Part shown: positions 34,063 through 54,601 of the stretch, piece after piece
How positions within the stretch are numbered: position 1 is the first letter of the stretch
Layout: every line of letters starts with the position of its first letter
From: Acorus gramineus
Taxonomy: Eukaryota > Streptophyta > Magnoliopsida > Acorales > Acoraceae
DNA length: 64,000 nt
Direction of reading: 5' to 3'
NCBI GenBank assembly: GCA_030737835.1
Contig: CM060857.1
Location: 9,330,145-9,394,144, forward strand
Notes under the pieces: generated by a model
Told to the model about the DNA's origin: nothing
The model's database searches: none
What the model saw: only the letters and a program-made list of their open reading frames with translations
Made by a program: the position numbers and the translations under genes

Positions 34063-35313
34063 ATGGCGGCCATGGCAGCAGCTTTCCTCTCCATTGGTTC
34101 AGTTTCTTCTTACGCTGCACAGACTGGCAGTGGGGGTAAACCAAAGTCCATCAGCATGAGCTCACGTGCCTTAAATTCTTTGAAGAGCTTCAGCGGTCTC
34201 AAGGCAGCATCGTCAGTCAGCTGTGAATCAGAGACATCTTTTCTGGGTACGGAAAGCAATGCTGCCCTTCTTAATACATTTGCTTCAAAACCAGGAAATC
34301 AAAACCAGAAAAATCCGAACTATCTCCAGCCCCGAGCATCCTCTTTCAAAGTGGCAGTCCTTGGAGCTGCAGGAGGAATTGGCCAATCCTTGGCACTCCT
34401 GATCAAGATGTCCCCACTGGTCTCGGCCTTGCATCTTTATGATATTGCGAATGTTAAAGGAGTTGCAGCCGATCTCAGTCACTGCAACACCCCTTCTAAG
34501 GTTCTTGATTTCACTGGCCCTGCTGAACTGGCCGATTCCTTGAAAGATGTGGATGTGGTCGTTATTCCCGCCGGTGTTCCAAGGAAGCCTGGGATGACCC
34601 GTGATGACCTCTTCAACATCAATGCCAACATTGTTAAGACACTTGTTGAGGCTGTCGCAGATCATGCACCAGAGGCATTTATCCACATCATCAGCAATCC
34701 CGTCAACTCCACAGTCCCTATAGCAGTGGAGGTTCTTAAAGCGAAAGGTGTCTATGACCCGAAGAAGCTCTTTGGAGTGACAACTCTAGATGTTGTGAGA
34801 GCGAACACGTTTGTCGCGCAAAAGAAGAATCTGAAGCTCATCGATGTGGATGTCCCAGTTATTGGGGGACATGCTGGGATTACTATTTTGCCACTGCTAT
34901 CAAAGACGAGGCCGCCGGTTAGTTTCACAGATGAAGAGGTGGAGCAGCTGACAGTGAGGATTCAAAATGCGGGGACTGAGGTCGTCGAGGCAAAAGCCGG
35001 CGCGGGATCTGCCACACTGTCAATGGCGTATGCAGCAGCCAGGTTTGTGGAATCCTCTCTCAGAGCACTAGACGGGGACGGGGACGTGTATGAATGCGCT
35101 TTCGTCCAGTCAGAGTTGACTGAGCTCCCCTTCTTTGCATCGAGGATCAAGCTGGGGAGGAAGGGTGTAGAAGCGGTGATTTCAACAGATCTACAGAACC
35201 TCACAGATTACGAGGCAAAGGCTCTCGAAGCATTGAAGCCAGAGTTGAAGGCCAGCATCGAAAAGGGTATTTCTTTTGCACAGAAGCAGGAGGGAGCCCC
35301 AGCATCAGTTTGA
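34063..35313 (+). CDS. pdNAD-MDH: Plastidial NAD-dependent malate dehydrogenase
   Basis: An intact single-exon frame of 416 aa, close to the 403 aa of the Arabidopsis plastidial enzyme, which is also intronless. Residues 1 to about 90 are Ser/Ala-rich and lack acidic clusters, as in a plastid transit peptide. The mature part shows the NAD-binding loop GAAGGIGQ (101-108), Asp127 of LYDI (NAD preference), the active-site loop VPRKPGMTRDDL (172-183) with Arg174 and Arg180, Asn212 in SNPVN, Asp243/Arg246 in TTLDVVRA, and the catalytic His270 in GGHAGIT. The enzyme interconverts malate and oxaloacetate with NAD(H) in the stroma and supports redox balance in the dark and in non-green plastids. The family is also known to have a non-catalytic role with the FtsH12 complex. 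Two degraded partial copies lie at 50767-50925 and 59212-59995. Confidence 0.97.
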   Translation: MAAMAAAFLSIGSVSSYAAQTGSGGKPKSISMSSRALNSLKSFSGLKAASSVSCESETSFLGTESNAALLNTFASKPGNQNQKNPNYLQPRASSFKVAVLGAAGGIGQSLALLIKMSPLVSALHLYDIANVKGVAADLSHCNTPSKVLDFTGPAELADSLKDVDVVVIPAGVPRKPGMTRDDLFNINANIVKTLVEAVADHAPEAFIHIISNPVNSTVPIAVEVLKAKGVYDPKKLFGVTTLDVVRANTFVAQKKNLKLIDVDVPVIGGHAGITILPLLSKTRPPVSFTDEEVEQLTVRIQNAGTEVVEAKAGAGSATLSMAYAAARFVESSLRALDGDGDVYECAFVQSELTELPFFASRIKLGRKGVEAVISTDLQNLTDYEAKALEALKPELKASIEKGISFAQKQEGAPASV

Positions 35314-36209
35314 GCAGACACATGCACTTCCTTCGTATGGTGGGGTTTTACAGCAGAGAATGAAATAAGGTGCGTCTTTGTTAGGCATATTGTTCCTTTT
35401 CAGTTTTGCAGGATAGAAGATTTATATGAATATACAGTCATTATCGCAGTCCTGATGTTTGTCAAAGAAACATGTAATAGATTTTTGTTTGAATCATTTG
35501 GTGCACCGTTCTTGTATTACCTTACTGGTGCAGTTTTTGGCTGGTTGGAAAACCCTAAACACTGGTTTTCAAGTAGTGATCATTTTCTTGGTCACGTCTC
35601 CTTTATTTCATGTTATAAATTGTTTTTCAATCTGTCGATGTGACTATGATTTCTCGCCTCTTGTGGGGTTTTTTTCTTTTAGCAATTTCTTTTGATGCTC
35701 AGAATTTACATGCATTTAGTCATAATTATTATCTTTGCTTATCTTCATGTCAATTTCTCCAGTACAGGTGATTTTCAGAGCATAAACAAGTTCTTATAAA
35801 TGCATTTAACATATGTGAATTAACAAGTAAAAATGATGTACAATTCAGTTACTTCTACATACATACATTGTTCCAGTGGAACAACCATATGGTTTTGGTT
35901 CCCAGGTGATTCATTTTTTAGATATCCGCTTTATGTCTTGGTCATATGCCACAGGTTTCCAAAATAAAAGGTTTTACTAGTGAGTTTCCTTGATGTCTTC
36001 TGACTAGATGAATATTTCTATCCACCTATCTTGACCTTGCCTCCTATATATTGGAACTTGGTCTGTCATGTAAAATTTGATATTTCCAAAGATCTGCACA
36101 GAAAAACATACTAACATTTGCATGCCAAACCCACAACTTGTAACAATTAGCAACAAAGATCTGAACAAATCCTACGCAAGGTGAAAGTACATGTTGCTTT
36201 TTTATTTTC
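35314..36209 (+). other. 3'UTR and downstream flank of the malate dehydrogenase gene, member of a duplicated block
   Basis: This segment, from about 35345 (agaatgaaataaggtgcgtc) to 36209, is strongly similar to 51485-52670 and partly to 59985-60597. Similarity continues past the expected 3'UTR, so whole genomic blocks, not mRNA copies, were duplicated. Confidence 0.75.
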
Positions 36210-52678: not shown

Positions 52679-54601
52679 TTAAAACGAAGGGAACTCGATC
52701 TGCGAAGAGCACCTGTTCCTGGGAAACAGAGGACAATTAATGAGGCTGGTCCCCGAAGAGTCGACGCACATGTAAATCTGATATAACTGGCTGTTCCTCG
52801 ACTCATCAACGTTGCACTCTATCCCAGGCGTGTACCCGGTCCCTTCCTTGATCGCTTCTTTGATGCTTTTCAGGCCGTAGAACCCGCCATCCGGTTCGAT
52901 CCCTGGAATCATTATATCAATGAAGTAAGCATCATCAGGCCTTAATATTGTGTTTGATGGGTTTGATGATGATGTATGTTTATTACCTGAGGATTTCAGG
53001 ATTTGGAGGAGATTGAGTTGGTCCTTGAGTTTGAGAGCTGTTTCGAAGTAGGCGTGATGGTCGAGCACGGATTCGGAGCAGGTGCCGTGTTTTTCCCACT
53101 CGTGTTTCCAGAATTTGAGGCCGTTGCCACTCGGACAGGCGAGCGTCGGCCAGTCTGATTGCATTTTGGGTATCAGGTTGGATATCTGCACATGTGATCA
53201 GGCAACCTTGATCATGTCATTTAGTAATCTAAATCTAAAATTTGTCTCATTGCATCACTCTATTGATTTTTTACTGTGACTTTCTTTTAAAGAAAAGATG
53301 GAACATTTTGGCTATACACAATGGATAATGGACAAAAGATGGAAGATTTTGTCTTTACTATCACTAAATTTTTGTAAAAATATTTAAAGACCTTGCCTAT
53401 ACCTCAAATTTTGTTTCGGTAAAATACGAATAATATCTTGATATATTGAATAAAGGTACAAGATTATAATCATTCATTTGATATGTTATTCGCGGACCCC
53501 ATTGGTATACAGTGTACTTCTGCTAACGTGGAAGGAAGGATTGCTTCCCAGGAATCTGGGACGCTAATGGAAAAAAACAGAAAGATCAACGAAAACCGAA
53601 TACGGAAGTCTCTTGCCCTTATCACGTCACAAAGTGGTTATCCATCACCTCATGGTACAAATTTGTTTGGGTGATACAAACACAAATACAACTAAGAATG
53701 AAAAAATGGTACGATTTAGATTTATAAAATTTAGAGGCCATGTAAATAGATATTTTTGTATATGGATAAACAATCAAACTTTGCATGATTGAACACAGAA
53801 TTTCAAACGTAATTTTTTCAGGTGTGAATCATAAAGAAAATGAGAATGAACTCCAAACCAGTTTATACGAGAATGAGAAGAAATTACAAAAAATCAATTT
53901 TTTTTTACATGTCAATTTATCTGTTTATAAATTAAAATATAATAGATTAATTTCAACAAAGTGTTACAATAAAATATTTATTTTAGTTTCAACAACACAG
54001 CTTCATAACCTCAAGATCAGAATCTGCTCATATTCGTTCTCTAAAAAAAAAAAAAAAGATCAATAAAGGTACCTTGGATGAATCAAAAGGATTATCAGGA
54101 TCACAATCGGACGGATAGGATCCATCATTGTAATTTGGCCACAATCCATGGATGCTGAAATCTGCTTCTGGCTTTCCTGTTGTAGGGTAACAACAGCTTT
54201 GCTTCGTATCACAATATGATCCCGGCCACTGCATTCAACAACAAAAGCATTCAAATCTTTGTTTTAAAATAACATATATTATTATCTATATTTGTTTACG
54301 AATTGGACAAAAAGTAACATGTTCATATATACTCAAATAACCATATATACACATGTTTGTTTCTTTACTTTTCTCTTGTTCTATTGACTGTCTTTCTTCT
54401 GTTCCTCTCATCTCTAATTCGAACATTGTCTGTTTTGATATTTTCTATTTAAATAGATACACCCACATTTCATAAAAAAAAAAAAAAAAAACTAAGACTA
54501 ACCTGTTGAACGAAGTAGAAGAAATCGAAATCCTGTCCAGTGGAAATGGAAACATAGAATATTAAAAATAGAGCACATAATGAAGCAACAGGAATTTTCA
54601 T
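52679..54601 (-). CDS. S-like ribonuclease, RNase T2 family (four exons)
   Basis: Exons 54503-54601, 54073-54228, 52987-53185 and 52679-52902 have GT-AG junctions and join in frame to 225 aa, normal for S-like RNases. Residues 1-21 (MKIPVASLCALFLIFYVSIS) are a signal peptide, so the enzyme enters the secretory route to the vacuole or apoplast. CAS I is FSIHGLWPNY with His60. CAS II is WKHEWEKHGT with His113, Glu114 and His118. Multiple cysteines (SYCDTKQSCCYP, DCDPDN, ECN, INCP, NRC) match the disulfide set. Such RNases cleave RNA through 2',3'-cyclic phosphates and are commonly induced by phosphate starvation, wounding or senescence. The simple structure and lack of a self-incompatibility locus context favour the S-like class. 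It lies tail-to-tail with the dead malate dehydrogenase copy. Confidence 0.96.

What the first reader, a model, noticed from the sequence alone, without database searches (positions are those of the whole stretch)
34063..54601. Reciprocal gene loss after duplication of a malate dehydrogenase / RNase T2 tail-to-tail pair
Seen: at 34063-36343 an intact malate dehydrogenase is followed by a dead last exon of RNase T2 on the opposite strand. At 50767-54601 a dead C-terminus of malate dehydrogenase is followed by the intact RNase T2, again on the opposite strand. The sequence between the two genes is homologous in both places (35345-36209 and 51475-52678). Inference: one ancestral pair was duplicated as a genomic block and each copy kept the other's lost gene. 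Each gene survives once, about 18 kb from its original partner. This is a small worked example of divergent resolution, which in other lineages or crosses could create hybrid incompatibility if copies are resolved differently.
Basis: partly seen in the sequence, partly recalled or inferred. Interest (0 to 1): 0.85.

Follow-up and report, generated by a model that had tools for sequence, protein, structure and literature searches.

The report
Split gene pair with truncated copies
In the sweet-flag Acorus gramineus, an old neighbouring pair of ordinary plant genes seems to have been pushed apart by a small local duplication that left dead gene ends beside each intact gene; this looks like everyday genome decay rather than a demonstrated case of whole genes being lost reciprocally.

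Summary
An intact plastid NAD-malate dehydrogenase (MDH; 34063-35313) is followed by a dead RNase T2 tail (36225-36329, minus). A dead MDH tail (50766-50917) is followed by an intact S-like RNase T2 (four exons, 52679-54601, minus). The spacers are homologous (85.5% of 837 aligned sites). The genome is Acorus gramineus.

A tandem duplication of just the two gene ends plus spacer, about 14-21 My ago, gives this mirror-image pattern in one step with no gene lost. No trace of the missing 5' parts is found beside the dead ends. That test is weakened because the dead MDH tail's left edge was remade later by a copied fragment of another gene, so reciprocal loss stays possible (0.33). 'Divergent resolution' does not fit: different genes are involved, 17 kb apart, and a second assembled ~98% identical block has the same arrangement. 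The clearer gene loss is MDH, absent from the paralogous block on C7.

The parts
34063..35313 (+). intact plastid NAD-dependent malate dehydrogenase (MDH_A), single exon, 416 aa
   Evidence: open frame; Pfam Ldh_1_N/Ldh_1_C; best solved relatives named malate dehydrogenase, chloroplastic; 98% to an Acorus calamus protein
35314..36224 (.). spacer A, homologous to spacer B and partly to copy C
36225..36329 (-). dead RNase T2 tail (rn_A): last 34 codons plus stop; homology ends about 36334
   Evidence: tblastn 94% over residues 192-225; alignments
37295..42094 (-). copia-type LTR retrotransposon between the copies; LTRs 37295-37426 and 41963-42094 differ at 2 of 132 sites; flanking 5-base repeat GTGTG
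   Evidence: Pfam RVT_2, rve, gag_pre-integrs
45362..48628 (.). multi-copy dispersed repeat between the copies (extent joined from two searches)
   Evidence: copies at the same places on C5, C1, C3, C7 at 92-93% and 91-95%
49408..50759 (+). copied fragment (upstream DNA, exon 1, part of intron 1) of another gene at C11:10051360-10052760, abutting the dead MDH tail
   Evidence: identity 94% upstream, 99% exon, 98% intron
50766..50917 (+). dead MDH tail (mdh_B) with one in-frame TAG
50918..52678 (.). spacer B, with two stretches absent from A (about 50930-51473 and 51623-51929)
52679..54601 (-). intact S-like RNase T2 (RNase_B); exons 54601-54503, 54228-54073, 53185-52987, 52902-52679; 225 aa
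   Evidence: splice-site search; PF00445; 95% to an Acorus calamus protein
59223..60598 (+). copy C: forward piece 59223-59299, inverted piece 59342-59672, forward piece 59669-60598 (A 35041-36005), followed directly by a palindromic element 60600-61249
2..604 (-). open frame, taken as an exon of neighbouring gene X1, whose homologue on C7 lies beside the C7 RNase T2 paralogue
   Evidence: ORF; 86% to L028:8168-8703; no Pfam match

Best explanation
An old convergent pair, MDH -> <- RNase T2, underwent a small local tandem duplication that covered only the MDH 3' end, the spacer and the RNase 3' end. Such a duplication leaves MDH intact plus a stub of RNase on the left, and a stub of MDH plus intact RNase on the right, with no gene lost. 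The stubs were dead on arrival. A second copying event with template switching made fold-back copy C. Transposons and a copied fragment of another gene then pushed the two halves 17 kb apart and trimmed the edges. Shown: shared ancestry of the segments, same order and orientation, absence of detectable outer gene parts, later insertions. Inferred: that the duplication was partial from the start, and the replication-based mechanism.
For: Homology stops inside both genes: the MDH 5' part plus 2 kb upstream has no match left of mdh_B (best 25 bases), and RNase_B's interior and upstream have none right of rn_A (best 19 bases), while the spacer still scores 488 bits. Order and orientation are those a single tandem event gives. 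The same MDH end was copied again as a partial, folded-back piece (C), so partial copying happens here. mdh_B and C share asparagine at a site where, of 83 plant MDHs that passed a motif filter out of 120 listed, 78 have lysine and none asparagine; one site only, it suggests the copied MDH end was already unconstrained before C was made.
Against: The left edge of mdh_B abuts a gene fragment whose intron differs from its source by only K 0.016, so that edge is recent. C reaches further 5' into MDH (35007) than B does now (35162-35167), so B, if it is C's source, was once longer. The original breakpoints are therefore not seen. On the rn_A branch, polarised by hand with the C7 paralogue (sequences), 4 of 6 changes are synonymous (one-sided P 0.035, or 0.02-0.07 by the neutral share assumed; 3 of 5, P 0.10, if the codon where C7 differs is left out): a weak hint that rn_A was once part of a working gene. 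Copy C lies beyond RNase_B and needs its own event.
Confidence: 0.55

Rival explanations
1. One reading: the whole MDH-RNase pair was duplicated in tandem, and each unit lost the gene that the other kept, by two large 5' deletions.
For: Both spacers end in both genes. rn_A has 2 nonsynonymous against 4 synonymous changes on its own branch (hand-polarised; P 0.035; weaker in the variants). The left edge of mdh_B was remade later, so longer copies may once have existed.
Against: Needs two independent deletions, each removing the outer part of a gene and its flank, while the spacer is kept at 85.5% identity; no 5' remnants found.
Confidence: 0.33
2. Transposon-borne gene-fragment capture: a Helitron- or Pack-MULE-like element carried the MDH end with the fragment of the other gene to the site.
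For: mdh_B directly abuts a copied gene fragment, pieces of the same upstream DNA lie at 45164-45317, 48624-48874 and 49408-50759, and a repeat family sits between two of them.
Against: The homology runs from mdh_B through the spacer into the intact RNase gene, which a captured fragment would not do. The other gene's fragment is far younger (intron K 0.016) than the A-B split (K 0.16). No element ends were sought or identified.
Confidence: 0.07
3. Product of the Acorus whole-genome duplication (about 41.7 Mya) followed by rearrangement.
For: A paralogous block exists on C7.
Against: rn_A and RNase_B differ at 7 of 102 sites, against 20 (A-C7) and 15 (B-C7). Spacer K 0.145-0.162 corresponds to about 14-15 My at the paper's rate, 16-21 My from the B and C branch lengths.
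Confidence: 0.02

Closest known systems
Partial tandem (segmental) duplication with breakpoints inside two convergent genes (general class, recalled)
   Same: Complementary truncated ends, same orientation, homologous spacer, no outer homology found
   Different: Original breakpoints have since been overwritten at least at mdh_B, so the partial nature is inferred
Reciprocal gene loss / divergent resolution of duplicates (Mimulus pTAC14, PMC5896889, passages seen; rice duplicated genes, Mizuta 2010, seen only as a reference in that paper)
   Same: Duplicated DNA with dead copies
   Different: In the Mimulus case one gene survives at different locations in different lineages. Here two different genes are involved in one genome, 17 kb apart, and both assembled copies agree
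Replication-based fold-back copies (MMBIR/FoSTeS type; recalled, no call)
   Same: Copy C has forward, inverted and forward pieces of one short source
   Different: Mechanism not testable from one genome

Membership tests
Reciprocal gene loss after whole-pair duplication | both units once held both complete genes | tested here: inconclusive
   no 5' remnants, but the mdh_B edge is recent
Reciprocal gene loss after whole-pair duplication | each unit now has one intact and one dead gene, complementary | tested here: met
Divergent resolution (speciation sense) | same gene retained at different copies in different lineages or haplotypes | tested here: not met
   second assembled ~98% copy has the same arrangement, MDH 0 amino-acid differences, RNase open; A. 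calamus locus tags 00624 and 00635 also place the genes apart; DNA of other accessions was not available
Partial tandem duplication | copies in direct order, homology ending inside both genes | tested here: met
Partial tandem duplication | original junction joining the RNase stub to the MDH stub | not testable with these tools
   14.4 kb now lie between them, including a copia element, a repeat and a gene fragment
Plastid NAD-MDH | sequence relationship to chloroplastic NAD-MDH | tested here: met
S-like RNase T2 | RNase T2 domain, closest to LE-type RNases rather than S-RNases | tested here: met
   E 1e-102 to RNase LE against 6e-27 to S3-RNase; PF00445

The most novel reading that the evidence does not exclude
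Both genes really were duplicated as a pair about 14-21 My ago, both copies of RNase T2 worked for a time, and each unit then lost the other's gene, splitting a convergent pair that many angiosperms seem to have kept adjacent since before monocots and magnoliids diverged.
Probability: 0.3. Interest if true: 0.4.

Novelty: new member of a known kind. Interest (0 to 1): 0.27.

Why it matters
It shows how a mirror-image pattern of dead gene ends, which looks like reciprocal gene loss, can come from one small duplication that never copied a whole gene. It also suggests that plastid NAD-MDH and an S-like RNase T2 are old neighbours in magnoliids, monocots and Ranunculales, so Acorus offers a datable case of such a pair being pulled apart.

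Tried and rejected
Whole-genome duplication as the source of the A/B copies: rejected, because A and B are closer to each other than to the C7 paralogue. Selection tests on the dead ends: rn_A branch 2 nonsynonymous to 4 synonymous; mdh tail A-B Ka 0.093, Ks 0.375; too short to decide. Rooting the three copies: an unrooted three-way distance cannot be rooted; protein outgroups suggest B and C are sisters from one shared site. The RNase interior and upstream DNA has a few weak matches elsewhere in the window (E 8e-6 to 1e-4 at 57305-57401, 18225-18314, 8027-8109), not beside rn_A; not followed up. Pfam gave no family for the exon at 50024-50447, for X1, or for the open frame at 36.9-37.3 kb that I took for a transposon remnant. 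A literature search for at least three of four terms (malate dehydrogenase, RNase T2, microsynteny, tail-to-tail) found 0 papers in the held library; I searched no further for prior reports of the pair. Searches for the right flank of rn_A and for FtsH paralogues did not complete.
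Full report
What is there. The window lies at C11:9330145-9394144 of a 398.6-Mb assembly. Two RNase T2 proteins in the public protein set, both labelled Acorus gramineus, sit on contigs of 17010742 and 24737384 bases, the lengths of C11 and C7 here, so the genome is Acorus gramineus (taxonomy). At 34063-35313 there is one open frame of 416 aa whose best solved relatives are named chloroplastic malate dehydrogenase and which is 98% identical to an Acorus calamus protein. 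At 54601-52679 on the minus strand there is a four-exon RNase T2 with GT-AG introns, closest to plant RNases of the LE type and much less close to S-RNases.

The copies. The window's self-comparison shows that the MDH 3' end, the spacer and the RNase 3' end occur twice in the same order and direction: A (35167-36329) and B (50771-52783). The A-B spacer identity is 85.5% over 837 aligned sites, K 0.162 +/- 0.015, after leaving two B-only stretches out of the alignment. In 200 shuffles the best score was 36 bits against 488 observed. A third copy, C, has three pieces: forward 59223-59299, inverted 59342-59672 and forward 59669-60598, all from the MDH end and spacer. Over the 606 noncoding sites aligned in all three, distances are AB 0.145, AC 0.121, BC 0.193; three-point branch lengths from these are A 0.036, B 0.108, C 0.084.

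Age. Ma et al. 2023 (PMC10282084; abstract and outline, passages, sections 6 and 8) give a synonymous rate of 5.26e-9 per site per year, an Acorus-specific WGD at about 41.7 Mya (Ks about 0.46), and a gramineus-calamus split at about 9.9 Mya (95% CI 5.6-21.6). With that rate the A-B spacer distance gives about 14-15 My, and the B and C branch lengths give 16-21 My. Applying a synonymous rate to spacer DNA is an assumption. The event is therefore younger than the WGD and probably older than, or near, the split from A. calamus, where the locus tags of MDH (CPB21g00624) and RNase (CPB21g00635) also place the two genes apart on the same 29161594-base contig.

The pair is old. In Persea americana the two genes carry consecutive locus tags (Pa07g0043 MDH, Pa07g0044 RNase), and in Kingdonia GIB67_028538 and GIB67_028541. 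Counting by hand over the 120 listed proteins of each search (of 758 and 7997 matches), 27 species appear in both lists with contig lengths. In 16 of 27 they do not: nine core eudicots (Escallonia, Parasponia, Rhamnella, Alnus, Camellia, Actinidia, Ricinus, Gastrolobium, Cannabis), and also Telopea, Protea, Nelumbo, Tetracentron, Macleaya, Papaver and Colocasia; some of these are short scaffolds or different assemblies and cannot be judged. Placement in clades is recalled. Equal contig length is a proxy and says nothing about distance or orientation on a long chromosome. The positive cases cover magnoliids, monocots and Ranunculales, so the pair very probably predates Acorus.

The WGD copy. 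C7:16741001-16751000 holds an RNase T2 paralogue and, 3.6 kb further on, a gene 86% identical to window 1-536. RNase_B against C7 has Ks 0.35 and Ka 0.098 over 201 codons, of the order of the WGD peak. No MDH match is found in that stretch (best E 0.99); the only spacer match beyond the RNase is 38 bases near its stop (E 0.003). A protein search of the whole genome finds one other full-length plastid-type MDH, the C11 inverted copy; the rest cover only part of the protein (residues 1-269 at the contig edge, the dead tails, and matches of 26-68% identity on C3, C6 and C10). So the clearer gene loss is the MDH missing from the C7 block, although insertion of MDH on C11 is not formally excluded.

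How it most likely arose. A tandem duplication whose two ends fall inside the two convergent genes yields, in one step, intact MDH + RNase stub, then MDH stub + intact RNase. No gene is lost. This predicts direct order (seen), abrupt ends inside both genes (seen) and no outer remnants: the MDH 5' part and upstream DNA has no match left of mdh_B (best 25 bases), and the RNase interior and upstream DNA has none right of rn_A (best 19 bases). Whole-pair duplication needs two more deletions, each cutting from the outside, while leaving the spacer in place. mdh_B and C share asparagine at a site where 78 of 83 plant MDHs have lysine and none has asparagine (83 of the 120 listed proteins passed the motif filter), which fits a copied MDH end that was dead before C was made. 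It is one site.

What weakens this. The DNA that abuts mdh_B on the left (49408-50759) is a copy of the upstream DNA, exon 1 and part of intron 1 of a gene at C11:10051360-10052760, with 94%, 99% and 98% identity in the three parts. It is much younger than the A-B split, so the present left edge of mdh_B is not the original breakpoint. C reaches about 160 bases further into MDH than B does, so B, if it is C's source, was once longer. Between A and B there are also a copia element with 2 of 132 LTR differences and a 5-base target repeat and a multi-copy repeat. On the rn_A branch, polarised by hand with C7 (sequences), 4 of 6 changes are synonymous (P 0.035; P 0.02-0.07 under other neutral shares; 3 of 5, P 0.10, without the codon where C7 differs): a weak sign that the RNase copy may have worked for a time, with no correction for CpG-type changes. 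I therefore put partial duplication at 0.55 and reciprocal loss at 0.33.

Divergent resolution. The speciation idea requires the same gene to survive at different copies in different lineages, as in Mimulus pTAC14 (PMC5896889, passages seen). Here the two units kept different genes. The second assembled copy (C11:9.82-9.91 Mb, inverted, about 98% identical) has the same arrangement: its MDH has no amino-acid difference, its RNase is open with four coding exons at 98.5-100% DNA identity, and both junction regions align at over 99%. The two genes are only 17 kb apart, so recombinants lacking both would be rare (inference). This part is not supported.

Assembly caveat. The ~98% copies are most likely unpurged haplotigs. 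For: the assembly (398.6 Mb here; 391.6 Mb in the paper) exceeds the flow-cytometry size of 362 Mb, the paper reports 6.07% duplicated BUSCOs and very high heterozygosity, and a 23-kb stretch between N runs begins inside MDH. Against: the paper's k-mer estimate is 409.66 Mb, larger than the assembly, and three near-identical versions of part of the region exist, which two haplotypes alone do not explain. This was not resolved.

Noticed in passing
C11:9820001-9910000 (L019-L027) and C11:9297129-9320144 (L011-L014): Inverted ~98% identical copies of much of the window region; the second lies between N runs and starts inside MDH. Probably unpurged haplotigs, but three versions of part of the region exist.
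   Followed up: partly
window 49408-50759, 48624-48874, 45164-45317: Repeated pieces of one gene's upstream DNA and exon 1 from C11:10.05 Mb; the repeat 45362-48628 sits between two of the pieces.
   Followed up: partly
window 52903-52986: The public Acorus gramineus RNase model (P0003, 253 aa) holds 28 extra residues that match a stop-free reading of this 84-base intron, so it probably retains intron 3.
   Followed up: yes
window 60600-61249: Palindromic element (80% self-match in inverse orientation), with relatives at 4385-4658 and 9530-9822, abutting the end of copy C.
   Followed up: no
window about 62150-63450: FtsH-like AAA protease gene (AAA domain) downstream of the pair; whether it belongs to the ancestral neighbourhood was asked but not answered.
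   Followed up: no
   Followed up: partly
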